Shown piece after piece: positions 496 through 40,663 of a DNA stretch of 41,141 nt. The stretch is from an uncultured Pseudomonadota bacterium. Its GTDB lineage: Bacteria > Pseudomonadota > Alphaproteobacteria > UBA3830. Location of the stretch: NCBI GenBank assembly GCA_902796155.1, contig CADBNZ010000008.1, positions 1 to 41,141 of the forward strand, in the 5' to 3' direction. Position 1 is the first letter of the stretch, and every line of letters starts with the position of its first letter. Made by a program: the position numbers and the translations under genes. The notes under the pieces are model-generated. The model saw nothing but the letters and a program-made list of their open reading frames with translations. It was not told the DNA's origin and searched no databases.

Positions 496-3400
496 CTAAA
501 ACATATTATGTGGTTCTATTCCTTTATCTTTTAGTATTTTCCAAAGTCTTTGCAACGATTCTTCTTTATTGTAGTAGAATGCTGATTCACGTATTCTGAA
601 AAATTCCCATCCGCATCGCTCAAGTTGCCGTTGTCTTTGCATATCATCCTAATAATTATCTTGATTATGCCAATGATCTCCATCACATTCTACCGCTAAA
701 CGCGCATTTCCTCCTATCACGACAATATCGATGTGTTTCCCTGCGACTTCATATTGCGGTAGTATTTGATATCCTTTACGCATTATTTCCAATGCAACAT
801 CTATCTCAAACCAACTGTCAAACGGTTTTGATGGTTTTTATATTATTTCGTTTTCCTTTAGATTGATGTGCAATTTTTTCTAATTCCTCTCCTAATATTC
901 CATTAACTGCATTTATATTTCTATTTTCAAAAAATTCTAGTAAACGACGACGAAGACATGAAGTACTTAGATCTCCAATTTTTACAGAATGAAATAATAT
1001 TACTTGTTCTTTTGCTCGACTCATTGCCACATTGAATCTTTGTTCATCTGTCTTTTTTTGTTAAAGCAGTAAATTGAACATTAGGAGCTGCCAGCATAGA
1101 TAACAAAATAATATCTTTTTCATTCCCTTGGAATTGAGATGGAACACCACATATTATTTCATGTTTTTCATACTGTTCAGTGCTTAATCTTTGACTTAAT
1201 TGACTTTGTATTAGTTCAGCCTGCGCTTTTCCCTGTAAGGCAATAATGCCGATACTTTTATTACCATATCTTTCATCAATACAGATTTGCTCTATTTTAC
1301 TAACGATTGCATCTGCTTCTGGCCTATTTATTACTTTTTCTCCTTTTCCTTCCCTATAACCTTCAGCAACAAACATATTTTCAAGTGGCGGCAAACGATT
1401 TGCACCATATTGTTTAAGCGGAATCAGCGGTGTATTAGAATAGCAAAGATTATTGCTGAACCTTATTATTTCTGGCATACACCTGAAATGCTCTCTTAAA
1501 ACTATCTGGCTACTATTAAAAACAGCGTTGCCGACATCAAATAAACTGTAATCACAATTAAAACGAACTTTAAAAGAACCAAAATCGCTCAGATATTCAT
1601 TCATCAATTGATCGGTTTTGCTTCGATCAATCCCAACGTTTTCAGGACTAATTTGTTTATCATCTCCAACTATAAGAATCTTTTTAGCAAAATAAAATAA
1701 AGGAAGGGAATCAATTCCACATTGAGATGCTTCGTCTACTATTATTATATCAAAAATTTCTGGAGCTGCTGATAAATTATCCCAAACATTATAAAGTGGC
1801 ATAATCCATGCGGGAATAGCTTCACGACAACCGCTAAGATGTTCTTGAGCTGATTTTCTCCATTTATTTGCATGCTTACCTGTGCCTTTTCCTAATTTTT
1901 CTAAGGCTTTTTTCCAATGAGCAGCATGTTCTTTTTGTTCAGGTGTTAATCTATTAATACAAAAATCCCAAGATTTTAATTCAGCTAATTTTTGTATACT
2001 GTCTTTTATTCCATCTTCTATATCTTCCAGACTCTCTTTAATTTCTGAAATATTATTCTTGTTTATATAAGTTTCTATCCAATTTTTTGCTTGCGACCAA
2101 TACCAAGCATTTTCCAACTGTTCTTTTATTCTATTTTCCCAAATTGTATCATTATATGATTGCTCTATTTCGTTCATGGTACATGGAATTTTTTCTTTTA
2201 ATTCTGCTACAATATCCTTCAGCTCTGAAAATTCGTTTTTCATTTTAAGAAGATTGTCCAAACGAATTTTTGCTTTGCGATATTTTTCAGTATTAAATTG
2301 CTCTATTGCAGTTAATAATTCAGAAACTATAGGATGAGCATTATTTTTATCAATAATCACCTGTAATTGTTTCTTTACCTTATTGATTACTGTATAACTG
2401 CATTTCTGCTTTATATTATTTAGATCAGAAATCGATATAGTTGTATACTTAGAAAGATCGGTTTTGCTTATATCTGAAAATAAATTGTTTACCTCTGAAA
2501 TATCTTTTAAAATTTTAATCTTTCTTTCAATTTCTCGTAGCTTGATATCTTCAGAAATATCCATAAACTCACAAAGTAAATCTTTTATAATTTCTATATT
2601 ATAGTGATACTTAGAACAATTTATCAATATATTCAAATCCTCAATTGTTTTTTGACAAAATTGACCGTTTATTTTTATCTTATCAAATATATATGTACAT
2701 TTGCGTATATTTCTAGGTTTAAGTAGATTTAATCGACTTAAACTATGTCCTTCTTCCATATATTTTTTAAGAATTTTGGCATCTTCATAAATGCCTGCTA
2801 TCGTTAGTTCCAGAGGATAATCTATTTGATAATTATTTGCTGTTCCCTCGGAAATTCTAACTTCTTTTATGCAGTTATTTATCTCTTCTAAAATTCCATC
2901 ATAATTAGTTTCATTCCCATCAGAGATATTTTCGAATTCTGCGTTTATCCAATCTTCTTTATGTCGTAATAGGATAGCTTCTTTCTTGCTTTCTAACTTT
3001 TTAGTCAGTTGCAAAATTGAAATGAGATCATTAATAGATAATTTGGATAACTCATCGTTTTTATCTAAATCTTTCAAACTTGAGGCTTGAAGTGGAGGCA
3101 ACTCAGCAATCAAACTATCAAAAATTTCTGGTATTACAGTTATATCTTCAAAATCTTTCGATAATTCATCTCTTATATTATAAAACTTCCTCATTCCTCC
3201 TAAAATTCCCAGCATTTTGCTGGTGGATAAATTAAATTCTGCCTCCAAGACGATTTTATCTTTAAACCAAGCATATTTTTCCAACTCTTCATTAATTCTT
3301 TGTACGATTTCAGACGCCGTTCCGTTATATCGTCCTCTGCCAACTGATTGTTTGAAAGTTTCAGATTTTATAATACCTTCCAGTTGCCTATCTTTTTTCG

Positions 3401-4830
3401 CTTTTTCTCTCCTTAATTGATCTAAATTTTGACGGATTTTACTAATTTGATAATTAATTTTTTCACTATTCCATCGGTTACTTGAGTCTAAAATTGCACT
3501 AATACCACCTTCTAGTATCCTTTTTTCTTCTGTATTATTTCCAAGTAAACTAATAACAAGATTTTTCAATGAATCCGGTATTTTATCTCTCAAAACTTTC
3601 AATGCTGTCGCGGTTTTTGCTGTAACAAGTATTCTATTGCCAGTTGCTAACAAATGACATATCAAATTTGCAATAGTATGTGATTTCCCAGTGCCTGGAG
3701 GTCCTTGAACTACAACTCCGCTGGTGGATTTAATCCTATCGATAATTTTCTCTTGTGCTTCATTATAAGGTAATGGGAAAAAAAGCTCGTCTGCATCAAT
3801 ACTTATATTGTTGCTATTTTCTTGTTCAGCTACACCGCTATGCTCATTTCCTATACTTGTAAGTTCTCTGAACAAAGCAGGTATTTTCCCTCCTTCATTA
3901 ATTTGATGAATAATATCTTCTAAAATCTTTTTTAAACCTATTTGAGGACGATCTCTTAAAATACTTGCAAGAGAAAATGTTATGGTTGGTTTGTTACTAA
4001 CATTGCCTATTCGTTCAAGAACAGGCGAGTATTCACCATCGCCAAATATTGTGTTCAACGCTTCCTTTAAGATTTTATCAATATTTTCTTGAGTAAGTGA
4101 GCTGTCATCCTCCAATAATTTTTTTACTGCCTCTTCAGTTTCTCTGTTTATATTGTCTTCAAGCATTTCAAATTCAGGATATCGATTCCCCATATCGGAA
4201 GACAAACGAACTGTAAGTTCTGATTTTTGAGCATCTAATTCAATTTCTGTTTTTCGAAACAAGCAAATGCCTTGTTATCGTATTACCATCTTTGTTTTTA
4301 TATTGTAAAAGTCCTAAACCTAAAATTAATTCGTATTGTTCCTTATTCTTATTTAATGCTTGGCGAATTGCAAAAAGCTTCTGATAATACTTTTCTTCTT
4401 TTTTCCATTTATCATGTTGACTTTTCCATTCTCCCCATTGTTTTAAGTATTTATCAAAATTCAATTTTACTTGTGGATAATTCAATAACTTTCTCTCGAA
4501 TTTTTCAAATTTAGATTCCTCAAAAATATTATCTCTCAATTGAGGTTTTGAATCGTCGTCTTCTTCAACGATCCATTGAACGCATATTTCAGGTATACTA
4601 GGTTTAACAGGTTCTTGTTTACGCCGAACTTTTAACAACTCATCATCTGTATTTGACCAATCCTTTAAAGTACAATTTGTATCAACCAAATCGCTAAACC
4701 ATAAAATATTTTCTTCTCCGTAATCAGTAGGTATGTATAAAATGGCCTTACGAGTTGCCTGTGTTATCTTTAACAAATATTCAATAAGTTTGGATTGTTT
4801 TTCTTTTCTACCTATATCATATTTAGACAT
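496..4830 (-). pseudogene. Broken SF1 (Upf1-like) helicase with C-terminal Vsr/DUF559-like nuclease
   Basis: The pieces form one gene of about 1,440 codons split over several frames. Residues 1-196 (4830-4240) are an N-terminal domain. The frame then changes at an A-run near 4255, and 1044-4262 carries the helicase. Its motifs are Walker A GPPGTGKS, Walker B IIVDEASQ, GDDKQ and LREHFRCMPE, with a long coiled-coil-like insert between them. A second shift at the A7 run near 1046 separates it from the next piece, which continues DEQRFNVAMSRAKEQ, the usual SF1 motif VI. A third shift near 845 leads to PFDSWFEIDVALEI, then IDIVV, RLAVECDGDHWH, a TAG stop near 651, DMQRQRQLERCGWEFFRIR and the TAG end at 496-498. 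That last part is the PD-(D/E)XK nuclease seen in Vsr-like/DUF559/MTES_1575 proteins. Such helicase-nuclease fusions are often found in defence islands. Sequencing error at the homopolymers cannot be excluded for two of the shifts. Confidence 0.85.
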
Positions 4831-5084
4831 ATTTTTTTCCTAATAATTGGGGAGCGCTACTCTTTATGATAACAAAATAATGTTACTATTATATTAAGGT
4901 ACTGTAAACCAATTGAATCGATGCGGACGCGAAGCCCCCGTAATTTCGCTAGCGGCAGAAATTTTTATTTTGGTTAACTTTACCGACGAATAGGGACTAA
5001 ATAGGACTGTATCAGCCTTGTCTGCATCTGAAATTTGAGTGTTAAGTTTACTTTTTGGCTTTTCCGTATTTCCCGAAAAAATGA

Positions 5085-5110
5085 TATAATTCTATATATC
5101 GCAAGGAGGT
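5085..5110 (+). promoter_or_regulatory. Candidate -10 box and strong Shine-Dalgarno of the terminase-like gene
   Basis: A perfect TATAAT lies at 5085-5090, and a consensus AAGGAGG at about 5103-5109 lies a few bases before the ATG at 5115. No good -35 hexamer is found at 17 bases. A weak TTTCCG lies 18 bases upstream. The ribosome site is stronger than that of most genes in the window and fixes the start. Only about 18-20 bases separate the end of the -10 box from the Shine-Dalgarno, so the leader would be very short. Confidence 0.5.
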
Positions 5111-5114
5111 AGTC

Positions 5115-5534
5115 ATGGCATTAATGAAGAAATCGGAATTAGCGCAAAAGTTGGGCGTTTCCAGGGCTTATATTTCAAAGCTCATCAAAGAAGGGAAATT
5201 GAAAGAGCAAGGGAAATTAGTCGATGATGAATCGCTGAACAGGTATAAAAGCCTAAAAGATCAGTTATTAGAAGCGAAATTGCATAATGAGGAGCTGAAA
5301 GGCGAGCTTTTGAGGGAGCGAGTAAAAGAAATCGAAAGCAAATATATTCCCAAAAATGAAGCTATAGCAGTATTTGAGGAACGAGCGAACACTGTCCGCA
5401 ACGCAGTGCTTAAAATTCCAGACAGAGTAGCTGAGGCAATAGCTTTAATGACGGATATAAGAGCGATCGATCAACTTTTAAGGGATGAAATAAGGGCAAC
5501 TCTATTCCGAATAAGCGAAGGAGCAAAAGAGTAA
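5115..5534 (+). CDS. Phage terminase small subunit, Nu1-like DNA-packaging protein
   Basis: The product is 139 residues. The N-terminus has a winged-helix/helix-turn-helix signature (ELAQKLGVSRAYISKLIKEG, about residues 8-27). A charged helix (about 45-75) follows, then the segment KYIPKNEAIAVFEERANTVR and KIPDRVAEAI. This order and length match the lambda Nu1/Phage_Nu1 family, in which the small subunit recognises phage DNA at pac/cos and brings in the large terminase ATPase. No large subunit, portal or capsid gene is visible on either side, so it is an isolated remnant or has been kept for another role, for example as a DNA-binding regulator. The AGGAGG site supports translation. It lies between a broken helicase-nuclease gene and the 3' side of tRNA-Ser. 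Confidence 0.75.
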   Translation: MALMKKSELAQKLGVSRAYISKLIKEGKLKEQGKLVDDESLNRYKSLKDQLLEAKLHNEELKGELLRERVKEIESKYIPKNEAIAVFEERANTVRNAVLKIPDRVAEAIALMTDIRAIDQLLRDEIRATLFRISEGAKE

Positions 5535-6042
5535 ATCGCAAAATGAGTACCCCAACGCCATGAGAACCGATTTAATGAGTTTTTTCTTTTAGCAAGGACT
5601 CAATATCTGTACAATGATTCGCAGTTGGTATGGAAAAATCTTTTTTAATCCGAGGTGGTTTTACTTTATAGCATCAACCTTTAAGGGGTACTTTTAGGGG
5701 TATATTTCAGAAATTTGAAATCAAAAACACTGAAATATTAGAGTTCTTAAACGATGGACAGGAGTCCCTAGGGGACGCCAAGTTTGTATCTAAAAAAATT
5801 AATTTAATGTTCCTATTTAACTTTTTTGAGCCAACACAGGCGTGATTGTGATCGATACCACAGAACAAGAAACTAGATATTATTTAGAAGTTTTTAAGGA
5901 CGGTCATGGAAAGAGAAGATATGCTGCAGCGTTTGTTATAGGCAAAAACAGTAATGGTCTACAGACTGGAAAACAAATAATTATGTTCATCAAAAAAATT
6001 CGATTGTTAATTGATTAGAATAGCAGATATAAATACATCATC
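5535..6042. other. Mostly gene-free spacer between terminase-like gene and tRNA-Ser
   Basis: The stretch has no gene that I recognise. A 59-codon open frame (5842-6018, listed separately) is the only candidate. The adjoining tRNA-Ser presents its 3' end to this region, which is where site-specific integrases usually act. I saw no second copy of the tRNA 3' end in the window and no integrase. Confidence 0.45.
5842..6018 (+). CDS. Possible small protein or gene remnant of unknown function
   Basis: A GTG-started frame of 58 residues begins VIVIDTTEQETRYYLEVFKD and ends KKIRLLID. An in-frame TGA at 5827-5829 limits it upstream. There is no obvious Shine-Dalgarno, so it may be the remnant of a longer gene. 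The composition looks protein-like (alternating charged and hydrophobic residues), but no family is recognised. Chance is a real alternative at this length. Confidence 0.2.
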   Translation: MIVIDTTEQETRYYLEVFKDGHGKRRYAAAFVIGKNSNGLQTGKQIIMFIKKIRLLID

Positions 6043-6131
6043 TGGCGGAGAGAGCGAGATTCGAACTCGCGAAGGGGGATACCCTTGCCGGTTTTCAAGA
6101 CCGGTGCCTTAAACCACTCGGCCATCTCTCC
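6043..6131 (-). tRNA. tRNA-Ser(UGA)
   Basis: The minus strand folds as a class II tRNA of 89 nt with encoded CCA. The acceptor pairs GGAGAGA with TCTCTCC, followed by discriminator G and CCA (complement at 6043-6045). The D-arm has GGCCGAGTGG. The anticodon stem-loop is CGGTCTTGAAAACCG, with anticodon TGA. A long variable arm (AAGGGTATCCCCCTT) and the T-loop GTTCGAATC are clear. It closely resembles Escherichia coli tRNA-Ser(UGA). Its 3' end faces the accessory region at 1-6042, so it is a candidate integration site. Confidence 0.96.
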
Positions 6132-6144
6132 GCAATGCAGTAAA

Positions 6145-6169
6145 CTGCAGTAGAACTACTCTACTGCAG
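6145..6169 (-). terminator. Hairpin after the MFS transporter gene
   Basis: A perfect 10-base-pair inverted repeat CTGCAGTAGA / TCTACTGCAG has a 5-base loop and lies 9 bases beyond the transporter stop codon. On the minus strand it is followed only by a short T stretch (TTTA), so it is a weak intrinsic terminator. On the plus strand it is followed by AATTATTTTTA. It separates the transporter transcript from tRNA-Ser. Confidence 0.55.
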
Positions 6170-6177
6170 AATTATTT

Positions 6178-7482
6178 TTAGTACTCGCTGTCTTCTTTCC
6201 AAATAAACAGCGCGACTGCTGTCAATCCTGCAGATATTATGAATAATACAGCAGGAATGGTCGGATCACCACTCCATTTTATCAAATATGTAGCCAAAGT
6301 AGGAGCGTATGCACCGAAAGCTGCCATAGCGAAGTTGTGAGCGATCGAAACGCCGATCAAACGTACTCTTGTAGGCAGCATTGAGCAGATAGTCGCCGGA
6401 ATTGGTCCGTAATACATTGAGAACAGGAATATAATCCCCATTTCTCCGAGAAGGGCGCTAACAAATGTCGCCGATTCTACCATGTAATCAAAAAACGGAA
6501 AAGCCAAAGCTGATAATGAAACGCACGCAATCAACATTTGTATACGCTTTCCTAAACGATCGGCAAGCCATCCTCCAAGCAATATGGACAATCCAAACAC
6601 TGTCATGTTTATAGATTGAATTATAAATACGGATTCTTTTTCAAGATGAAGGATTGTTTCAAAATATGTTGTAAAGAAAATCGCTATGAGGAAATATCCG
6701 CAGGCTGTAAGAACATCTGTGATGGTTATGAGGGTTACGCCTTTCCAATGGTTAAGGAATAAATTGCGCAGAAGTCCTTTCTTTTTATTCTCATCTATTT
6801 CACTTTTCTGTTGAGCGATAAATTCTTTTGGATCATCAAGTTTGAGTTTGACATATTCAGCTATAAATGTTCCTAAGAAACTGATTATGAAAGGGATTCT
6901 CCAACCGATAGTTTCCAATTGTTCCGGCGTGAAGATTTTTGCCATGATTGTTGCAACAATAGCGCCCAAAATAAAACCTGTTACCAAGCTGAACGGCGCC
7001 CAAGCCGAATACGTGGATTTTTTAGATGGGCTGGAATGCTCGTAGAGGAACACGATTGTGCCTGTAAAACCGCCTCCGAGTGCCAATCCCTGCACGATTC
7101 TTACAATTGTGAGGATAATACCTGCCCATATACCTATTGTTTCATAGGTAGGTAAAAAGCCCATAAGAGCTGTAGGGATAGCCATCATATAAATTGATAT
7201 AACAAGAGCTTTTTTACGTCCATATATATCTCCTATGTATCCAAAAAGCACTGCTCCGATAGGACGAGCGATGAGACCTGATGCAAAAGCTCCAAATGAT
7301 GCAATTATTTCTTGAAAATCGTCTCCTGATGGAAAGAATAATTTACCGATGATTGTTGCAAAAAATCCGTATACCGCAAAGTCATACCATTCCAAGGCAC
7401 TTCCCGCGACACACGATATAATCACCTTTTTCATTTTGCTAAATTCTGATTCGTTTCTACTACTTACAGTATTTGTTGACAT
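6178..7482 (-). CDS. MFS transporter, metabolite:H+ symporter (ProP/KgtP-like) family
   Basis: The product is 434 residues, a normal length for the MHS branch of the major facilitator superfamily. The N-terminal signature SALEWYDFAVYGFFA is typical of ProP, KgtP and CitA relatives. The loop 2-3 motif appears as GYIGDIYGRKKALVIS, and its repeat in the second half as GGWLADRLGKRIQ. About 12 hydrophobic segments are visible. The protein would sit in the inner membrane and import a compatible solute or organic acid with protons. The substrate cannot be told from sequence alone. The start at 7482 is chosen because TTAGGAGTTAGAAG lies just before that ATG; an upstream start at 7527 lacks such a site. 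The gene stands alone, is followed by a hairpin, and is divergent from rpoH. Confidence 0.88.
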   Translation of the reverse strand: MSTNTVSSRNESEFSKMKKVIISCVAGSALEWYDFAVYGFFATIIGKLFFPSGDDFQEIIASFGAFASGLIARPIGAVLFGYIGDIYGRKKALVISIYMMAIPTALMGFLPTYETIGIWAGIILTIVRIVQGLALGGGFTGTIVFLYEHSSPSKKSTYSAWAPFSLVTGFILGAIVATIMAKIFTPEQLETIGWRIPFIISFLGTFIAEYVKLKLDDPKEFIAQQKSEIDENKKKGLLRNLFLNHWKGVTLITITDVLTACGYFLIAIFFTTYFETILHLEKESVFIIQSINMTVFGLSILLGGWLADRLGKRIQMLIACVSLSALAFPFFDYMVESATFVSALLGEMGIIFLFSMYYGPIPATICSMLPTRVRLIGVSIAHNFAMAAFGAYAPTLATYLIKWSGDPTIPAVLFIISAGLTAVALFIWKEDSEY

Positions 7483-7666
7483 TCTTCTAACTCCTAAAAA
7501 AATAAAAGAACCTAAAACTTCTATCATAAAAAGATAAAATTCTCAATATATTGGTCAATAGTCTCTGATATTTTATGCCTCTGGTATAAACGATGGAAAA
7601 AATGCTATTCTGAAAATGAGAAGCAAGTTACGTTGTTGCGTAGTATTATGTGTAGTGAGTGTAAAA

Positions 7667-8614
7667 ATGGTCGGAAGATTCAGTGGATTATATAACGAAG
7701 AAGCTCTTTCGCTTTATATGGAGGAAATCAAAAAATTTCCTATCCTTGGGCAGGATGAAGAATACGAACTTGCAACACGATGGAAGGAAAAAGGCGATAA
7801 GCGCGCTATGGATAAACTCATCAAAAGCCATCTACGACTTGTAGCAAAAATTGCTCGCGGATATTCCGGATATGGTCTTTCTCAAGCAGATCTTATAGCA
7901 GAAGGAAACATTGGCATAATGCATGCTTTACAGCATTTCGATCCGAGCGTCGGATATCGTTTTTCAACGTACGCAATGTGGTGGATAAAGTCGAAAATCA
8001 GGGATTTTATATATAATTCGTGGTCTATAGTTAAACTTGCGGGCTCAAAAGATAATAAAAAAGTATTTTTCGGACTTAATAAAGCGAAAAGAGCTCTCGG
8101 AATAGACAAGGTTTCCGATGAGAACGCAAAGCTTGTCGCAGAAAAAATGAAAGTCGATGAAGACGATATCATAACCTTGGAAAAACGCTTCACGAATAGA
8201 GATTTTTCTGCAAATACTCCAATGGGAGAAGACAGCAATAGTTCATATCAGGATTTTATTGCAGATATGTCCCAATCCCAAGAAGAACAACTGCTGGAAC
8301 AACAGGAGCACGAATACCGCAAGAAAATTTTGCATGAGGCGCTGAATACACTGAACAAACGAGAATATGATATAGTTTCTGCATATCGTTTGAATACTCC
8401 AACCAAAAGTTTGCGTGAAATAAGTAAGGAAATGAATTTGTCAGCGGAACGTGTCAGACAAATCGAGAATGCTGCATTTATGAAATTACAGAGGCATATA
8501 AGAAATGTCGAATGGAATATGGAAAACCTTGGCAACAATAATAAAGACGGTAGCGGTTCTTCTTATCAAAATATAGCGAAATGCTTCGCAAACGTACTTT
8601 TAATTATCGGATAG
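7667..8614 (+). CDS. rpoH: RNA polymerase sigma-32 factor (heat shock sigma factor)
   Basis: This is a sigma-70-class protein of about 315 residues. Region 1.2 (LSLYMEEIKKFPILGQDEEY), region 2 (DLIAEGNIGIMHALQHFDP, FSTYAMWWIKSKIRDFI) and region 4 (LREISKEMNLSAERVRQIEN) are in order. The segment after region 2.4, SWSIVKLAGSKDNKKVFFGL, is the counterpart of the RpoH box (QRKLFFNLR in E. coli), which marks sigma-32. It would direct RNA polymerase to heat-shock promoters such as those of chaperones and proteases. The start at 7667 aligns best with the family. An in-frame ATG at 7616 would add 17 Cys- and Val-rich residues and looks less likely. The C-terminal tail after region 4 (about 35 residues, Asn/Gly-rich) is longer than usual. 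Confidence 0.9.
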   Translation: MVGRFSGLYNEEALSLYMEEIKKFPILGQDEEYELATRWKEKGDKRAMDKLIKSHLRLVAKIARGYSGYGLSQADLIAEGNIGIMHALQHFDPSVGYRFSTYAMWWIKSKIRDFIYNSWSIVKLAGSKDNKKVFFGLNKAKRALGIDKVSDENAKLVAEKMKVDEDDIITLEKRFTNRDFSANTPMGEDSNSSYQDFIADMSQSQEEQLLEQQEHEYRKKILHEALNTLNKREYDIVSAYRLNTPTKSLREISKEMNLSAERVRQIENAAFMKLQRHIRNVEWNMENLGNNNKDGSGSSYQNIAKCFANVLLIIG

Positions 8615-8657
8615 TTGAGCATAGAAAACTAGCAAGCAAAAAATTAATAGAAACAAT

Positions 8658-9548
8658 TTATATCTTCGGGAAATATTCAGGCAGGGGAGCGATAATTTCC
8701 AGTTTCATTCCTTCAATATTTACCTTATAAGCATGCAAGAATAATTCTTGATGAAGCGAGTTCTTGTTGTATTTTTTATCGCCTAAAATCGGGGCATGTA
8801 AAGTCTCAGCGCAATGGACTCGCAGCTGATGCTTTCGACCCGTTTGTGGCTGGAGTTCAAGCAAAGTATAGTATTTAAACTGCTGATCAGAAATTTTTCT
8901 GGGAAGATATTTCGTTATCGCGCGTTGACCTTCTCCATTTAACGCAACTCTTATTTTTTCTTCGCCACCAACAATAGTTTTTTGCAAAAAATTATCGATA
9001 GTTCCAGCTGTTTTTATTTTTCCATCGACTATTGCGAGATAAGTTTTGTGAATCTTATTTTCTCTAAATAATCTGGTTAGTTTTTGCGCCGCAAGTCTTC
9101 CTTTTGCTATTAATAAAATTCCGGAAGTATCTTTATCTATTCTATGCACAAGTTTTAAATCGTTTCTATAAAAGTTCATCATGGTTTCTACAGAGATTTT
9201 TACTTTAGATCCCATCTGAACTGAAAGATTTGTGGGTTTATTTATTGCAATAAGATCTTCGTTTTCGAAAACAATCATTTGCTTGAATTGTTCCAGCAAT
9301 TTTTGATTTTTTGATTCGTCATTATTGGCTTTTTTCAAATCGGTTGGAGAATTTTTATTTGCGAAAATTTGTACAATATCACCTTTATTGAGATGGTCAG
9401 AAGCCTGCGAGCGTTTCCCGTTCACTTTTACTTTTTTTGTGCGAAAAATTTTCTGTAAAAAAGTATAACTTACTTCTCCGAAAACATTCGCGACAATTTT
9501 ATCAGCTCGCAAACCATTTTCTTCTGCAACAACTATGTGCTCAATCAT
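8658..9548 (-). CDS. rluC: RluA-family 23S rRNA pseudouridine synthase (RluC-like)
   Basis: The product is 296 residues. An N-terminal S4 RNA-binding domain (about 12-65, with FLQKIFRTKKVKVNGKR) is followed by the catalytic domain. The catalytic motif is HRIDKDTSG, with the nucleophilic Asp at residue 138. The family motif near the C-terminus reads PQTGRKHQLRVH. The enzyme isomerises specific uridines of 23S rRNA. RluC (positions 955/2504/2580 in E. coli) is the best guess because of length and S4 domain, but RluD-type specificity cannot be excluded. The start codon overlaps the alaS stop as ATGA, so the two are translationally coupled with alaS upstream. It converges on rpoH. Confidence 0.85.
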   Translation of the reverse strand: MIEHIVVAEENGLRADKIVANVFGEVSYTFLQKIFRTKKVKVNGKRSQASDHLNKGDIVQIFANKNSPTDLKKANNDESKNQKLLEQFKQMIVFENEDLIAINKPTNLSVQMGSKVKISVETMMNFYRNDLKLVHRIDKDTSGILLIAKGRLAAQKLTRLFRENKIHKTYLAIVDGKIKTAGTIDNFLQKTIVGGEEKIRVALNGEGQRAITKYLPRKISDQQFKYYTLLELQPQTGRKHQLRVHCAETLHAPILGDKKYNKNSLHQELFLHAYKVNIEGMKLEIIAPLPEYFPKI

Positions 9549-12160
9549 ACCACTTCAATAAATTTACTGACGGCTTCTGCGATTTTTGCTTTTCCTGTGC
9601 CTGCTCCTTGCGCAAATGCTGCGTTTCCTCCGCCTTTACCGCCGAAAAATTCAACGCAACTTTTCAAAAGTTTTTCGGCGTTGTATTTATTTTGCAAATC
9701 CGCACTTACCGAAACAACGACATTGACTTTATCCGATGAATTTTGCCCAGAGATTATCAGAGCTATTGTTTTTTCAGGGTGTTTTGCTTTTACAATATCG
9801 CCTATAGACCTTAATTCGTTAATGTCATAATCATCTGCAATCAAAGAAGCAATTGATATGTTTCCTTTTTCTTTTATCTCAAGTTTTTCAATGGCCATTT
9901 TTTGTTTGCAAACGACTAATTCTTGGTTTTTCTTTTTCAAATCATTTAGGACATCATCGATTTTTTGGATAATTTCAGCCGTTGTGCATTTCAGATGGTC
10001 AGATGCGATGTTGAGTGTGTTTTCAACTTCTCTAAAATGTTCCAAAACTTTTGCACCTGTAATTGCCTCAGTACGTCTTATGCCAGAACCGATGCTTGCT
10101 TCCGACAAAATCTTGAAAGCTCCAATCAATGCAGTGTTGTGAATATGCGTTCCTCCGCACAGCTCAAAAGACAAAGCTTTTCCTTTGCAATTAGAAGAGG
10201 CGACCTTGACCGTCCGCACAACATCGCCGTATTTTTCTCCGAATAAAGCCGTTGCGCCTGCGGAAACCGCGTCGTTTTTTGACATAGATTCGTTTGCGAC
10301 ATCTAGTCCTTGCAAAATCCAATCATTTACTAAATCTTCTACTTTTTCAATTTCTGCTTTCGAAAGAGCGGCATTATGCGAAAAATCAAAACGCAAACGC
10401 TCATCATTTAAAAAGGATCCACGTTGCGCAATATGATTTCCCAAAACCGAGCGCAAAGCAGCTTGTAAAAGGTGTGTTGCCGTATGGTTCGCTCTAATTT
10501 TGCGACGCTTTTCTGAGTCGATTCGCATGCATACATCGTCCGAAACTGAAATTTTTCCGGAAATAATTTCGCCTTTGTGCGCTGTTATAGTGTCACAAAA
10601 TCTGAGAGTGTCATTTACTTTAAATTTCGCTCCGTTTTTCGTTTCAATAATGCCTGTATCACCGCATTGTCCTCCGCATTCGGCGTAAAATGGAGTAGAA
10701 GAAGTTATCAAAAATGCTGTTCCGTCAGATAATTCACTGATTTCTTCGTTATCTTTTACTATTGCGACGACTTTTGAATCGCAGGAATCATTTTCGTAAC
10801 CAATAAAGTTTGTCGCAGCCAATTTCTCTTTCAGAGTATGCCAAATTTTCTCTTCTTTACTGGCTCCGGAACCTGCCCATTTCGCGCGATTCCTTTGCTC
10901 ATCTAATGCAATATCAAACGCGGCTGTATCTACTGATATATTTTTTGATTTCAAAATATCTTGCGTTAAATCAAGTGGAAATCCATACGTGTCATATAAT
11001 TTAAATGCAATGTCGCCACTCAAAACGCCGCCGGAAGGAATATTTTGCGCACTTTTATTTAATATGCTTAAACCACGCTCAAGAGTATCTAAAAATTTCT
11101 CTTCTTCGTTTAATGTTATCGCAGATATTGTTTCACGCGCCTTTTCAAGTTCCGGATATGCGTCTTTCATTGTATCTACAAGGGAATTTGAGAGCTTAAA
11201 CAAAAACGGCTGCTTAATTCCGAGCATATTTCCATGCCTGATGGCACGTCTCAGAATGCGTCGCAAAACATAACCCTGCCCTTCGTTGCTCGGTACCACC
11301 CCGTCTGCAATCAAAAACGAAATCGATCTTATGTGGTCAGCAATAACTTTGTAGGATGGATAAGTATCTTTGAAATTCGTTTTGGAAATTTCTTTTGTGT
11401 CTTGAATTAATTTTGTGAATAAATCCGTTTGGTAGTTGTCATGAACGCCTTGGAGTACACTTGCGATACGCTCAAGCCCCATGCCTGTATCTATGGATTT
11501 TTTCGCGAGAGGAACTTGCTTGCCTCCTGCTTTTTGCTCGAATTGCATGAATACCAAATTCCAAATTTCGGTGTATCTGTCGCCGGATTCGTCAGGTGTG
11601 CCGGGAAGTCCTCCGGGAACATCAGGGCCATGATCATAAAATATCTCCGTGCAAGGACCGCAAGGACCAACATCACCCATTGACCAAAAATTATCAGACG
11701 TTGAAATTGGGATAATGAGAACATCCCCTGCGACTTTCTTCCAAATTTGCTTTGCTTCTTCATCGGTATGGTAGACAGTTACTGATAATTTTTCTTTTGG
11801 GATTCCCAATTCTTTTGTAAGCAAAGTCCATGTAAAATTAATAGCATCAGCTTTAAAATAATCGCCGAAAGAGAAGTTACCAAGCATCTCGAAAAAAGTG
11901 TGGTGACGAGCTGTATATCCGACTTGATCGAGATCGTTGTGCTTACCTCCCGCGCGAATACACTTTTGCGAAGTTGTAGCTCGCTTATATTCTCTTGCTT
12001 CCAATCCTGTGAAAACATTTTTAAACTGAACCATGCCTGCGTTCGTAAATAAGAGGCTTGGGTCATTGTGCGGAACAACAGAACTCGATTCCACAACCTT
12101 GTGCCCGTTCTTTTCAAAAAAACTGAGAAAAATGCTACGTATATCTGATGCCAGTAACAT
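9545..12160 (-). CDS. alaS: Alanyl-tRNA synthetase
   Basis: The product is 871 residues, close to the bacterial norm of about 875. The class II catalytic domain begins at FTNAGMVQFKNVFTG, and GDVGPCGPCTEIFYD and GMGLERIASVLQG follow. The editing domain carries the zinc and active-site motifs HTATHLLQ (HxxxH) and CGGTHI (CxxxH), so editing of mischarged Ser/Gly should be intact. A C-terminal coiled coil and C-Ala domain with GKGGGNAAFAQG close the protein. It attaches Ala to tRNA-Ala in the cytosol. Its stop overlaps the start of rluC by 4 bases. The start at 12160 fits the family (MLLASDIRSIFLSFF), although the Shine-Dalgarno is weak (GGAATG). Confidence 0.97.
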   Translation of the reverse strand: MLLASDIRSIFLSFFEKNGHKVVESSSVVPHNDPSLLFTNAGMVQFKNVFTGLEAREYKRATTSQKCIRAGGKHNDLDQVGYTARHHTFFEMLGNFSFGDYFKADAINFTWTLLTKELGIPKEKLSVTVYHTDEEAKQIWKKVAGDVLIIPISTSDNFWSMGDVGPCGPCTEIFYDHGPDVPGGLPGTPDESGDRYTEIWNLVFMQFEQKAGGKQVPLAKKSIDTGMGLERIASVLQGVHDNYQTDLFTKLIQDTKEISKTNFKDTYPSYKVIADHIRSISFLIADGVVPSNEGQGYVLRRILRRAIRHGNMLGIKQPFLFKLSNSLVDTMKDAYPELEKARETISAITLNEEEKFLDTLERGLSILNKSAQNIPSGGVLSGDIAFKLYDTYGFPLDLTQDILKSKNISVDTAAFDIALDEQRNRAKWAGSGASKEEKIWHTLKEKLAATNFIGYENDSCDSKVVAIVKDNEEISELSDGTAFLITSSTPFYAECGGQCGDTGIIETKNGAKFKVNDTLRFCDTITAHKGEIISGKISVSDDVCMRIDSEKRRKIRANHTATHLLQAALRSVLGNHIAQRGSFLNDERLRFDFSHNAALSKAEIEKVEDLVNDWILQGLDVANESMSKNDAVSAGATALFGEKYGDVVRTVKVASSNCKGKALSFELCGGTHIHNTALIGAFKILSEASIGSGIRRTEAITGAKVLEHFREVENTLNIASDHLKCTTAEIIQKIDDVLNDLKKKNQELVVCKQKMAIEKLEIKEKGNISIASLIADDYDINELRSIGDIVKAKHPEKTIALIISGQNSSDKVNVVVSVSADLQNKYNAEKLLKSCVEFFGGKGGGNAAFAQGAGTGKAKIAEAVSKFIEVV

Positions 12161-15846: not shown

Positions 15847-16500
15847 TCATTTATCAACAACCGGAAACAATCCTGGTTTTGGTGTAATAACGAACTGATA
15901 TTGTAATAAATTTGAACCAGTACCCGAGTTTTGTGGCACCATTAACAAAAATCCCAATTTAGATTTATCGAAACTTTTTCTTCTGTAACAAACCTCAACT
16001 ACTAAGCGTTCATCTCCATCCTTATGGCAAATCAAGTCTGGATGCATGTTTCTAACTTGGTTTGCTGTTTTTGTAGAGCTAGTATTAATTCCCTTATTTA
16101 TATTGCCTGGCCCGGTACCTCCAATGGATGATACCCAAAAGAGTAGATATTGATAACTATTGACCTCCAACCTTTTTACGTATCTGTAATTTATATAGTA
16201 ATAAATCCCAAATGGCCAAGGGTTAAACATAGTGTTTGTATGAAACAAATTAAGACCACTGGCAAATGTTATTCTTGCAAGATCGCTTATTGTCAATTGC
16301 TTATCTGTTCGTGTATTTCCTAAATTCTGTATCATGCTTGCGGCAAGATATGCAGAATTTTTTATTTTGTTTTTAAGTTCATAAAATCGATAGTGGTCAT
16401 TTACAAAAAACAGAAGGATTATGCAAAGGGGAATACAAAAAGTAAATTCGATTAATATTCCACCTTTGTGCTTCTTTCGCATCGATAAGAAATCACGCAT
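15847..16500 (-). CDS. TadE-like pseudopilin / pilus-associated protein
   Basis: The product is about 217 residues from the ATG at 16500. A basic leader (MRDFLSMRKKHKG) is followed by GILIEFTFCIPLCIILLFFV. This is the TadE/TadF class N-terminus: a Gly before the cleavage point, Glu at position 5 of the mature chain, and a hydrophobic helix. A TadV-type prepilin peptidase would process it, and the mature protein would stay in the inner membrane with its C-terminal domain outside. The C-terminal part is Tyr-rich and ends FVITPKPGLFPVVDK. Relatives belong to Tad/Flp pilus clusters, but no other tad gene is seen here. The start is uncertain: the frame extends to 16620, and an internal ATG lies at 16482. 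AAGG about 11 bases upstream weakly favours 16500. Confidence 0.6.
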   Translation of the reverse strand: MRDFLSMRKKHKGGILIEFTFCIPLCIILLFFVNDHYRFYELKNKIKNSAYLAASMIQNLGNTRTDKQLTISDLARITFASGLNLFHTNTMFNPWPFGIYYYINYRYVKRLEVNSYQYLLFWVSSIGGTGPGNINKGINTSSTKTANQVRNMHPDLICHKDGDERLVVEVCYRRKSFDKSKLGFLLMVPQNSGTGSNLLQYQFVITPKPGLFPVVDK

Positions 16501-16722
16501 TTGATAAACTGCCTTCAAATCACCCATCATTTTCTTCATCAAAGCCAACTTTAAGCGACTTAACACAAAAATGTCTCTATTATCATGTAAGAAACACTTA
16601 TCATGTATCTGTTTTAGCAAAATATAGTTAAGAAAAAGAAAAAATTTGTGACAAGGTCTTTAGTTGAGTGTATAGGCATCCATTGTAATGATAGCGCAAT
16701 AGCGATATACCATCGAAAATCC

Positions 16723-36977: not shown

Positions 36978-38039
36978 ATGAATAAGGTCGTAGCGGTTCT
37001 TGGCATAATAGTTTTATTGACGCTTGCAATGCTGTTCTTTTGCATTGGGTTCTTCACAGGCTCGACTGTTACTCCGGGAACTATTACGGAAGCGATTTCA
37101 TCGGAAATTAAGAAGGACGCGGGCGACAATATGAGCAAAGAGGCAATTGCTCAAAAGTTAGGCGATTTGGGAGATGTAAAATCAGCAAAAATTTCCGACA
37201 AAATCATGGGTATTTTGGCTGCTGCTGGATATACGGTTGAAAATTTTTCGGAAATCGTTAAATCAAAAACATCAAATGTAGGGAAATTTTCGAGCAAAAA
37301 GAAATTAAATGACGGAGGCCATTTAACTGTTGACTCATTATTAAGAGAAATGGCGATTTCGCATGATACAAAAGATGATTGCTCGTATGAAAAGACGATG
37401 AAGGAAATACAAGAGCAATCTCCAGTCACAGAACAACCTTTGCAAGGTAAAAAAGTCGTGTTTATAGGATATTTTAAAAATGCGATTGCGGGGCAGATTC
37501 AAAAATTGCTTACGGGCAAGGGATATAAAACGCATGTAGAAATGTCTAATGATGGGCACGAGTCATTTGTTTTTTGTGGCCCCTTCAAGAGAGATGAAAC
37601 AGCAAATAAACTGCTGAAATGGTTACAGGCTCATGATTTTTCAGAAGCAAGGGTTGTAAGCATATCAAAAGAAGCTATCGAAGAGACTCTATACGATGCG
37701 ATGAACGATGGAACAGGACTGCCTGAGAATGATGAGAACGCCCCGACTTCTTCTGCTGCAACAACCGGCGTTGCTGTGGGAGGTGCAAATACCGGAGCTA
37801 TGACAGGCGTTGCTCCAGCGAATACGACTATCGGTATGGGAACAACAGGGAATATGACAACGACTGCCCATAACTCTGCTGTAACTTCTTCAACAATAGC
37901 AAATCCTGCACTAACTCAACCAGCTGTTACGACTTCGCCATTTCCTACGACGATAACGCTACCTACAACTCCGACAGTTGGCACTGTCGTTCCACCTTCT
38001 CCTACGACTACAACAACGGCAATCCAACAAATAAGGTAG
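36978..38039 (+). CDS. Membrane-anchored protein with SPOR-like domain and Thr-rich tail
   Basis: The product is 353 residues. Residues 4-27 form one hydrophobic anchor (VVAVLGIIVLLTLAMLFFCI) with a short cytosolic start, so the rest probably lies in the periplasm. Residues about 158-229 (KKVVFIGYFKNAIAGQIQKL, then SFVFCGPFKRDETANKLLKW) show the strand-helix-strand repeat of SPOR domains, which bind denuded glycan strands at the division septum. This assignment is by pattern only. Residues 252-353 are low-complexity Thr, Ala, Gly and Pro, as in a flexible or wall-spanning tail. The architecture, an anchor followed by a SPOR-like domain, recalls FtsN or DamX, but the order differs because SPOR is usually C-terminal. 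It is divergent from glmU and convergent with the 780-residue gene. Confidence 0.6.
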   Translation: MNKVVAVLGIIVLLTLAMLFFCIGFFTGSTVTPGTITEAISSEIKKDAGDNMSKEAIAQKLGDLGDVKSAKISDKIMGILAAAGYTVENFSEIVKSKTSNVGKFSSKKKLNDGGHLTVDSLLREMAISHDTKDDCSYEKTMKEIQEQSPVTEQPLQGKKVVFIGYFKNAIAGQIQKLLTGKGYKTHVEMSNDGHESFVFCGPFKRDETANKLLKWLQAHDFSEARVVSISKEAIEETLYDAMNDGTGLPENDENAPTSSAATTGVAVGGANTGAMTGVAPANTTIGMGTTGNMTTTAHNSAVTSSTIANPALTQPAVTTSPFPTTITLPTTPTVGTVVPPSPTTTTTAIQQIR

Positions 38040-38320: not shown

Positions 38321-40663
38321 TCACGATCTTTTCGTCTTTTTTGTTGATCTATTTTGTGTTCCAGAAGTACCATTAGCAGACGTTGCGCTGTTTTTTTGCT
38401 TCTTTTTCTTTTTTGCTGACTGCTGTTGAGTTCCGGAAGATGCCCCTGAGCTGCCATTACTAGATGCAGAGCTACCTTTTTTCTTCGTTTTCTTTCTTCT
38501 GCTTTGATTGTTACTATTTGATGTATCGTTCTGCGTGCCTGCCGATTGTCTCGAACTATCATTGTCAGAATATGCTAAAGAATTTTCATTTTTTGAAGCC
38601 GCTTTTGATTTTATTCCACTGGCAATCGATGATATAAGCGAAGTTAATGGTTGAGCGGCGTTTTTGATAGCTTCTGCTGAATTTGCCACCTGAGATGCAG
38701 TATTTGCGGCTGTCGCGACAGCGTTATTCGCAGCGTTAACTGCTGTAGTAGCCGCTCCTACAGCTGTGTTGGTAACATTTTCCACTGCTCCTGTTGCAGC
38801 ATTTGCTGCTGTAGATACTGCCGAAGTAGCTGTTCCTGTTGCTTTTGCCACAGCCTCTGTGGCAGCGTTTGTTACACCAGGAGCGGTTGTAGCCCCTGCA
38901 GCAGCGGCAGCGGCTCCAGCTGCCAAACCTTCAGCGGCGGAAGTAGCAGGCCTCATTTGGCTGGTTGTTGGGTCTTTTACATACCCATAAGGAGCGCTTG
39001 GATCAGATCCTATAGGTACTAGCTGTCCTTGAGTGTTCATGACCATCTGTTGTCCGCCAGATCCTGCGATTCCGTTTGTTCCGTTGCCAAATATATTGTT
39101 ACCCGCGCCGAATATTCCTCCCAATCCGCCTCCTGTTAATCTATTAGCAATAGTTCTCAATTGGTCAGCTCCGACTGGACTGGGATTTCCATTTCTCATC
39201 ATTTCGTTATTGCCATATGGACTTCCGTAATAACCTCCGCCAGAATCATCATAGCCACCTCCGGAACCGTAGCTTCGGATTCCGTTATTGCCACCTCCAC
39301 CGCGATTGTCATCACCACCACCGAAGAGTGACATCACTCCTCTTTCTAAGACTCCTTTTATGCCACCAGCGCCGAATGCTCCTCCGTAAGAATCTCGGGA
39401 ACGCAAGCAATCTTCACAAACACCGCGCATCCCTTGGCCCCTTATTTGAAATACGAATTTTGGTCTCATACATATGATACATTCGCCATCTACCATACCC
39501 GCAGACATTTTTGAAACGCGATTTTCGTCCAAAACTCCCAAATTCCTGAGATATTCTATGGTTTCATTAACTACACTTGCATAAGCCTGCTGACTCATGC
39601 CACCATTTCCGTATTGAGGCATCATTGAAGCATTGCCCATCTGCCAGTAAGCACCGTTATTCATATCATTTATACCATATTGTCCAGCTTGTAATGGCTG
39701 ATTTGGTTGGCTGTAAGGATATTGATTGGCTAAAGAACTAGGATCCATTGTAGCCAGTTGATTTTGCTGATCAAGAGCTGGATATTGCGGAGTTTGAGGC
39801 AGGGCAGGGTACTGCAAATTATCTGGGTATGTAGGAAGAACATTCACATCTCCTGTAGGTGCAGTAGGAAGTGATGTTGCTGGCAGTTGCTGTTCCATAG
39901 GAACTTGAGCTGCTTCGATATCTGTCATTTCATCTTCTGTTTCTTCATTTTCGTTATTAAAATCGTCTTCCTCTGATTGATCCTCTTCCTCTTCTTCCTC
40001 GTCAGATTCATCATAATCATCCGACTCATCACTTTCATCGTTTGTATCATAATTGTCAGATTCATCGCCATATGATGAATCATCGTATTCTTCCCAGTCA
40101 TCTAAAGATCTTACATGATGACGTTGACCATCGAAATCTGCTGAATCATCTCCTTCGCTCATGATATCTGAGGAGAATTCGTCTTCTTCATATTCGTTTT
40201 CATTTTCTGAAACAGATGATTCTGCATTTTCGTTGTAGAAGTGTACACCTCTTAGATCCAGAGCATATTTTCCTCTGACTGTCTCATTTTTAGTAATGGT
40301 ATTTGAACGACTATTTCTCTGCTCATTTTCTGTTTCTTCGTCACCATAGTTGTGATCAGAGGAAGGCGACCTATATTCTTCTGCTTGTCGACTGTATTCA
40401 CCATTTTCGAGACCATGCTTACAGAATTGACACCCATTTTTGTTGTTTTGCCTGGTAAAATGGTCGTCTCTTTTATTAGAGTGTCCGCAAAAATTACACT
40501 TGTCGTCAGTCGATTTTCCTGAAGATACCCTACTTTGTCTACTGTTATTATGCCCGCAAAATGAGCATGTATTTGATGCTCTTGAGTCAGCAAAAATACG
40601 TTCGGTATGTGTTGCAATACCGCTTATTACGAACATAACCATAAGACAACAGAATATTCGCAC
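38321..40663 (-). CDS. Secreted mosaic low-complexity protein with Cys/His knuckles
   Basis: The product is 780 residues. Residues 1-25 form a signal peptide (MRIFCCLMVMFVISGIATHT, cut near FADS). Three near-identical knuckles follow at Cys 33/36-His 38, Cys 56/59-His 61 and Cys 78/81-His 83, read as CxFC(G/K)H with spacings of 23 and 22 residues. Residues about 156-250 are strongly acidic (Asp, Glu, Ser), and 250-350 are Pro/Gln/Tyr-rich. A fourth Cys site, CIIC at 395-398 and CEDC at 416-419, matches a C-x2-C-x17-C-x2-C zinc finger, reminiscent of the ClpX zinc domain. Residues 445-535 are Gly-rich, 575-670 are Ala/Thr/Asn-rich with helix-like repeats, and the end (721-780) is Lys/Ser-rich. 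No overall family is recognised. Export with so many disordered segments suggests a host- or matrix-facing protein; that is an inference. Confidence 0.75.
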   Translation of the reverse strand: MRIFCCLMVMFVISGIATHTERIFADSRASNTCSFCGHNNSRQSRVSSGKSTDDKCNFCGHSNKRDDHFTRQNNKNGCQFCKHGLENGEYSRQAEEYRSPSSDHNYGDEETENEQRNSRSNTITKNETVRGKYALDLRGVHFYNENAESSVSENENEYEEDEFSSDIMSEGDDSADFDGQRHHVRSLDDWEEYDDSSYGDESDNYDTNDESDESDDYDESDEEEEEEDQSEEDDFNNENEETEDEMTDIEAAQVPMEQQLPATSLPTAPTGDVNVLPTYPDNLQYPALPQTPQYPALDQQNQLATMDPSSLANQYPYSQPNQPLQAGQYGINDMNNGAYWQMGNASMMPQYGNGGMSQQAYASVVNETIEYLRNLGVLDENRVSKMSAGMVDGECIICMRPKFVFQIRGQGMRGVCEDCLRSRDSYGGAFGAGGIKGVLERGVMSLFGGGDDNRGGGGNNGIRSYGSGGGYDDSGGGYYGSPYGNNEMMRNGNPSPVGADQLRTIANRLTGGGLGGIFGAGNNIFGNGTNGIAGSGGQQMVMNTQGQLVPIGSDPSAPYGYVKDPTTSQMRPATSAAEGLAAGAAAAAAGATTAPGVTNAATEAVAKATGTATSAVSTAANAATGAVENVTNTAVGAATTAVNAANNAVATAANTASQVANSAEAIKNAAQPLTSLISSIASGIKSKAASKNENSLAYSDNDSSRQSAGTQNDTSNSNNQSRRKKTKKKGSSASSNGSSGASSGTQQQSAKKKKKQKNSATSANGTSGTQNRSTKKTKRS

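What the first reader, a model, noticed from the sequence alone, without database searches (positions are those of the whole stretch)
38321..40663. Secreted mosaic protein with regularly spaced CxFC(G/K)H knuckles
Three near-identical Cys/His knuckles at 23- and 22-residue spacing lie right after a signal peptide. They are followed by acidic, Pro/Gln/Tyr, zinc-finger-like, Gly-rich, Ala-rich and Lys-rich blocks. Zinc-knuckle-like motifs in a secreted protein are uncommon, and the C-x2-C-x17-C-x2-C site resembles ClpX zinc domains normally found in the cytosol. Alternating acidic and basic blocks could favour condensate or matrix formation. No described family fits.
Basis: partly seen in the sequence, partly recalled or inferred. 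Interest (0 to 1): 0.7.

Follow-up and report, generated by a model that had tools for sequence, protein, structure and literature searches.

The report
Exported zinc-site protein of Holosporaceae-type bacteria
This gene belongs to a previously unrecognised family of long, mostly unfolded proteins that one lineage of small-genome, Holosporaceae-labelled bacteria appears to send out of the cytoplasm, each holding one small conserved module that very probably grips a zinc ion; what it does is still untested.

Summary
The ORF (38321-40663, minus strand, 780 aa) has an N-terminal signal-peptide-like segment, three CxFC(G/K)H knuckles (residues 33, 56, 78; spacing 23 and 22), a C-x2-C-x17-C-x2-C site (395-419), and acidic, Pro/Gln, Gly, Ala and Lys blocks.

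It is not an isolated mosaic. Orthologues occur at one copy per genome in 22 of 41 genomes of its taxonomic family (all six genera), with repeat-bearing fragments in a few more. None were found in nine genomes of the order's other families or in 381 further class genomes. Named relatives are 'Holosporaceae' MAGs.

The hallmark is not the triplet (three knuckles in three species, one in a fourth) but the C4 module. It is 97% identical between two species while its flanks are 43-62% (core dN 0.012, dS 0.61). Three members swap one Cys for His, which argues for a metal site rather than disulphides. A 45-aa C-terminal repeat is a second shared module. No Pfam, NCBIfam, PHROG or PDB family matches, and the ClpX profile test failed.

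Best reading: a Sec-exported, largely disordered envelope or host-interface scaffold with one structural zinc module. Export, zinc and function are inferred. A real new orphan family, of moderate interest.

The parts
38321..40663 (-). Whole ORF, 780 aa, GTG start
   Evidence: orthologues
40586..40663 (-). Residues 1-26: Sec-type signal-peptide-like segment (MRIFCCLMVMFVISGIATHTERIFAD)
   Evidence: hydrophobic peak 2.90 (Kyte-Doolittle, 12 residues) at residue 3; comparable segment in the other complete orthologues; helix, pLDDT 84 over residues 1-10. No dedicated signal-peptide predictor was available
40550..40567 (-). Knuckle 1, CSFCGH, residues 33-38
40481..40498 (-). Knuckle 2, CNFCGH, residues 56-61
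40415..40432 (-). Knuckle 3, CQFCKH, residues 78-83
39914..40393 (-). Acidic low-complexity region, residues 91-250
   Evidence: 39% D+E; pLDDT about 30-40
39599..39913 (-). Pro/Gln/Tyr-rich linker, residues 251-355
39389..39583 (-). Conserved core module, residues 361-425: helix (VVNETIEYLRNLGVLDENR) then C-x2-C-x17-C-x2-C site
   Evidence: found once per genome in 22 family genomes; dN/dS about 0.02 against a sister species; model helix-hairpin-helix
39074..39388 (-). Gly-rich linker, residues 426-530
   Evidence: 33% Gly
38921..39055 (-). Single copy of the ~45-aa C-terminal repeat (QMVMNTQGQLVPIGSDPSAPYGYVKDPTTSQMRPATSAAEGL), residues 537-581
   Evidence: profile A3 matches in 21 family genomes, often several copies; predicted two beta hairpins plus helix, pLDDT 58-80
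38570..38920 (-). Ala-rich stretch predicted helical, residues 582-698
   Evidence: 35% Ala; helices 599-698 in the low-confidence model
38324..38503 (-). Lys-rich tail, residues 721-780 (KKTKKKG... KKKKKQK... KKTKRS)
   Evidence: net +17 in the last 80 residues; replaced by a coiled coil in several genera

Best explanation
It is the local member of a lineage-specific family of exported, mostly disordered scaffold proteins. The Sec pathway carries it across the inner membrane and the first ~26 residues are removed. Outside the cytoplasm, a 65-residue module (one helix plus a C4, sometimes C3H, site) folds around one Zn2+ and serves as the one invariant folded anchor or binding domain. The long charged arms and the C-terminal repeat give reach and multivalent contact, either within the envelope or on the surface facing the eukaryotic host. 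In this genus the extra CxxC(G/K)H knuckles add a second, N-terminal metal-binding cluster. Shown: conservation, architecture, lineage restriction, Cys-to-His exchange, strong purifying selection on the module. Inferred: export, zinc, scaffold role, place of action.
For: One copy per genome in 22 of 41 family genomes and all six genera, although these genomes are small (0.6-2.2 Mb). Repeat-bearing fragments occur in further genomes such as G021, G043 and G048. Retained N-terminal hydrophobic segment in the complete members examined; in the window protein no later 19-residue stretch exceeds 1.13 against 2.90 at the N terminus. In most members the four core Cys are the only Cys after the signal segment. 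One core Cys is replaced by His in G020 and G023 (position 4) and G016 (position 3), which fits metal ligation and not disulphides. Core dN 0.012 and dS 0.61 against flanks dN 0.29-0.46. 650 of 780 residues have pLDDT below 50; the signal segment, core and repeat stand out. DsbB is absent in 37 of 41 genomes while the control Caulobacter has it, so free thiols outside the cytoplasm are plausible. SecB is encoded in the same window.
Against: No metal-binding, localisation or expression data. The model of the core has only moderate confidence (mean pLDDT 61), from six sequences. No fold match. No conserved gene neighbour that names a pathway. Scaffold is a default reading of low complexity. Four genomes have DsbB, including G017 and G044, which keep the C4 site. 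DsbA and VKOR-type oxidases were not searched.
Confidence: 0.5

Rival explanations
1. Host-directed secreted protein: after Sec export it leaves the cell and acts inside the protist or animal host, its Lys-rich tail contacting nucleic acid or acidic surfaces. It would work like PRP1 (63 kDa) of Holospora obtusa, a periplasmic protein released into the host macronucleus.
For: PRP1 is a precedent in the same order for an exported protein ending up in the host nucleus (PMC9866348). Lys-rich tail in G000, G005, G013, G024 and G009. Fast-evolving arms with a fixed core suit a host interface. A Tad locus and a second secretin locus are present in the genome as possible exit routes.
Against: The basic tail is not conserved; several genera have a coiled coil instead. 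No translocation evidence. PRP1 sequence could not be compared here. No host is named for the source genome.
Confidence: 0.22
2. Accessory or tip protein of the Tad-type pilus or of the large TadE/TadF-like protein set of these bacteria.
For: A Tad locus (CpaB, CpaC, CpaD, CpaE-like ATPase, two T2SSF proteins) is present. TadE-like genes lie next to the focal gene in G014 (32 bp apart, same strand), G016 and G004.
Against: TadE-like genes number 13 in this genome and up to 54 in a relative, so about one adjacency in 20 genomes is expected by chance. In the focal genome the one in the window is 22 kb away. The Tad locus itself lies on another contig.
Confidence: 0.1
3. Zinc storage or buffering protein of the envelope, using the knuckles and the acidic region as a sink.
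For: Three knuckles plus a core plus about 60 acidic residues in this species.
Against: Most relatives have only one four-ligand site in 560-1200 residues, a poor sink. No zinc-uptake neighbours seen.
Confidence: 0.06
4. Cys pairs form disulphide cross-links that stiffen an envelope matrix rather than binding metal.
For: Exported CxxC pairs are often oxidised in other bacteria (general knowledge).
Against: Cys-to-His swaps at two different positions in three members. DsbB missing in 37 of 41 genomes. Invariant His in each knuckle of G000, G005, G002 and G004.
Confidence: 0.08

Closest known systems
ClpX N-terminal zinc-binding domain (Pfam PF06689, zf-C4_ClpX)
   Same: Four Cys as two CxxC pairs with similar spacing and a hairpin-then-helix layout in the model; hhalign pairs all four Cys over 29 columns at 51% probability.
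   Different: PF06689 does not reach its cut-off on the focal core. No AAA+ ATPase domain; predicted to be exported. The genomes carry their own true ClpX.
uS14 type Z, Rad14/XPA, DksA and ClpC/ClpK-type C4 zinc modules
   Same: Best but non-significant PDB sequence matches of the 20-sequence core profile (S14Z E 0.026, Rad14 0.21, ClpC/ClpK 0.31, DksA 0.37), all zinc-binding C4 modules by general knowledge.
   Different: None significant; Foldseek and VIA-align give no match.
UPF0547 / zinc-ribbon families (PF10571 and others)
   Same: CxxCG-type half sites; E 0.065 at the first knuckle.
   Different: 13.8 bits against a cut-off of 29; only half a site covered.
Holospora obtusa periplasmic infection proteins (63-kDa PRP1, 89-kDa tip protein)
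   Same: Envelope or exported proteins of order Holosporales; PRP1 is described as a novel sequence (PMC9866348, PMC5911502).
   Different: Sequences not available here, so relation untested. PRP1 is described with a D5_N domain and no zinc site is mentioned.

Membership tests
ClpX zinc-binding domain (PF06689) | Profile score above the curated cut-off (27 bits) | tested here: not met
   Best focal hits 12.4 bits (first knuckle) and 9.9 bits (second); core not hit in G000. True ClpX in 38 of 41 genomes scores 68-73 bits
ClpX zinc-binding domain (PF06689) | C-x2-C ... C-x2-C site | tested here: met
   C395, C398, C416, C419
ClpX | AAA+ ATPase domain, cytosolic | tested here: not met
   No Pfam ATPase domain; N-terminal signal-like segment
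CCHC zinc knuckle (retroviral type, C-x2-C-x4-H-x4-C) | CCHC spacing | tested here: not met
   Knuckles read C-x2-C-x-H with no Cys at the required later positions
c-type cytochrome | CxxCH haem attachment | tested here: not met
   Motif is CxxC(G/K)H; Cytochrom_CIII only E 1.4 in one member of the family
UPF0547 zinc ribbon (PF10571) | Profile above cut-off (29 bits) | tested here: not met
   13.8 bits
Plectin/plakin repeat | Match of the 45-aa repeat to the Pfam or PDB repeat | tested here: not met
   Lead recalled from memory (DPxTG ... EGL). No plectin hit among the Pfam families shown at E 5 for ten members or in PDB at E 10
Tad pilus component | Encoded in, or next to, the Tad locus | tested here: inconclusive
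   Tad locus on another contig; adjacency to TadE-like genes in three relatives explained by their copy number
Holospora PRP1 / 89-kDa protein | Sequence homology | not testable with these tools
   Sequences not held; only descriptions read
Sec-exported protein | N-terminal signal peptide | tested here: inconclusive
   Hydrophobic N-terminal segment in the members examined and AF2 helix, but no signal-peptide predictor and no experiment

The most novel reading that the evidence does not exclude
A lineage-defining, exported zinc-module protein through which this group of Holosporaceae-type symbionts engages its eukaryotic hosts: disordered arms that evolve quickly around a fixed zinc module, possible because the envelope lacks the usual disulphide-forming DsbB and so keeps thiols free for zinc.
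Probability: 0.2. Interest if true: 0.65.

Novelty: new variant of a known kind. Interest (0 to 1): 0.42.

Why it matters
It turns an odd single ORF into a defined protein family that marks one family of little-studied symbiont-type bacteria and gives them a candidate host-interface or envelope gene. An exported structural zinc site in bacteria that mostly lack DsbB is unusual and can be tested with a 65-residue recombinant module.

Tried and rejected
First genome-contig scan with the whole protein found nothing, because its patterns came from low-complexity stretches; a repeat-based alignment found six named records. Viral contigs, phage and plasmid collections gave no match. ClpX membership rejected. 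Plectin-repeat idea rejected. Association with TadE-like genes first looked strong and was dropped after a copy-number check. A short N-terminal motif (FDLP...IF type) is real but confined to one genus (4 of 21 members; shuffled mean 0.07). Isolated NCBIfam hits to TolA, EbpS and collagen-like adhesins (one member each) were read as low-complexity matches. Low-complexity hits outside the family with E above 0.1 were ignored.

Full report
What is there. The ORF at 38321-40663 (minus strand) encodes 780 aa from a GTG start. The close orthologue in the same genus starts with GTG at the same residue. The knuckles CSFCGH, CNFCGH and CQFCKH lie at residues 33, 56 and 78. A degenerate DNA pattern for them occurs four times in the 1.07 Mb assembly, three of them here; the fourth is in a phage terminase gene, and the reversed control gives none. 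The C-x2-C-x17-C-x2-C site is at 395-419.

It is a family. Searching related genomes with the protein, then with profiles of the core (A2, A6) and of the C-terminal repeat (A3), gave orthologues at one copy per genome in all six genera of the taxonomic family. The count is 21 genomes with a clear core match, plus G009, a divergent member first seen as a weak core match and then read out in full. G021, G043 and G048 hold repeat-bearing fragments cut by contig ends. Nine genomes of the three other families in the order have neither the core nor the repeat. Among 385 genomes drawn from the class, only the four from this family match the core. Named records that carry it are 'Holosporaceae bacterium' MAGs and a red-deer MAG.

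Architecture. Members are 557-1205 aa long: hydrophobic N-terminal segment, acidic or otherwise low-complexity region (net negative in 19 of 21), the ~65-aa core, a Gly-rich linker, 0-4 copies of a ~45-aa repeat (QMVLNxxGQLVPxxS...PYGYVKDPxTGQxxPATSxxEGL), then an Ala-rich part, and a Lys-rich or coiled-coil tail. G005 has a second signal-bearing protein with one copy of the repeat. So the triplet decorates a subclade, and the C4 core defines the family.

The core is a likely metal site under strong constraint. Between G000 and G005 the core is 97% identical with dN 0.012 and dS 0.61; flanks after the signal segment are 43-62% identical with dN 0.29-0.46. In most members the four core Cys are the only ones after the signal segment. 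G020 and G023 have CxxH at the second pair (LCHYH, LCPFH) and G016 has HxxC (GIHKDC). A Cys-to-His swap keeps a zinc ligand and breaks a disulphide, so metal binding is the better reading. DsbB was found in 4 of 41 genomes only, which removes one common obstacle to free thiols outside the cytoplasm. AlphaFold2 gives a helix, a hairpin and a helix for the core at moderate confidence (mean pLDDT 61; 77-82 around the Cys). The full-length model is mostly disordered (650 of 780 residues below pLDDT 50), with the signal segment, core and repeat as islands.

What it is not. No Pfam or NCBIfam family reaches significance for the window protein, and no PHROG family matches. PDB sequence searches with core and repeat profiles give nothing significant; the weak core hits include other C4 zinc modules. 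The ClpX zinc profile, which scores true ClpX at 68-73 bits in these genomes, scores the focal protein at 12.4 bits at most, and only at a knuckle. hhalign of the core against local ClpX sequences gives 51% probability over 29 columns, a shared layout at best. Foldseek and VIA-align find no relative. Phage and plasmid collections have no match.

Context. Neighbours differ between genera. In the window the gene is convergent with an unrelated membrane-anchored ORF (36978-38039). The genome has a Tad locus and a second secretin next to a prepilin-type protein, and SecB is in this window, so export routes exist. A tempting link to TadE-like genes was dropped: those genes are present in up to 54 copies.

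Mechanism. I favour an exported scaffold with one structural zinc module (0.5). A host-directed secreted protein is the main rival (0.22); Holospora obtusa PRP1 shows that this order can release an envelope protein into the host nucleus (PMC9866348). Export, zinc content, location and role are inferences; none was measured.

Noticed in passing
window 15847-16620 (-): TadE/TadF-like protein (weak Pfam match) belonging to a strongly expanded family: 13 matches in this genome, 32 in G005, 54 in G008, 28 in G049, at least one in 38 of 41 family genomes. The reason for the expansion is unknown.
   Followed up: partly
L107 (G000:C16) 2776-10959 and L106 (G000:C34) 6908-9850: A Tad pilus locus (CpaB, CpaC secretin, CpaD, AAA ATPase, two T2SSF proteins) and a separate secretin beside a prepilin-type protein; every one of 41 family genomes has at least one secretin.
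   Followed up: partly
L024:4559-6028 (-) in G005: A second signal-bearing 489-aa protein carries one copy of the family's 45-aa repeat, so the repeat is shared between exported proteins.
   Followed up: no
G000 and 36 other family genomes: DsbB not found in 37 of 41 genomes; present in g2 (G012, G017) and two g5 genomes (G044, G046).
   Followed up: no
L074:2-3844, L081:2809-6972, L024:6691-8664: Large repeat proteins ('YGGDKFVTVAYNS..AAYSTTGTGTW' type) recur near the focal gene or its repeat paralogue in several relatives; no Pfam family above its cut-off.
   Followed up: no
window 36978-38039 (+): Convergent neighbour: membrane-anchored protein with a weak SPOR-like stretch (E 0.19) and a Thr/Pro-rich tail.
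   Followed up: no
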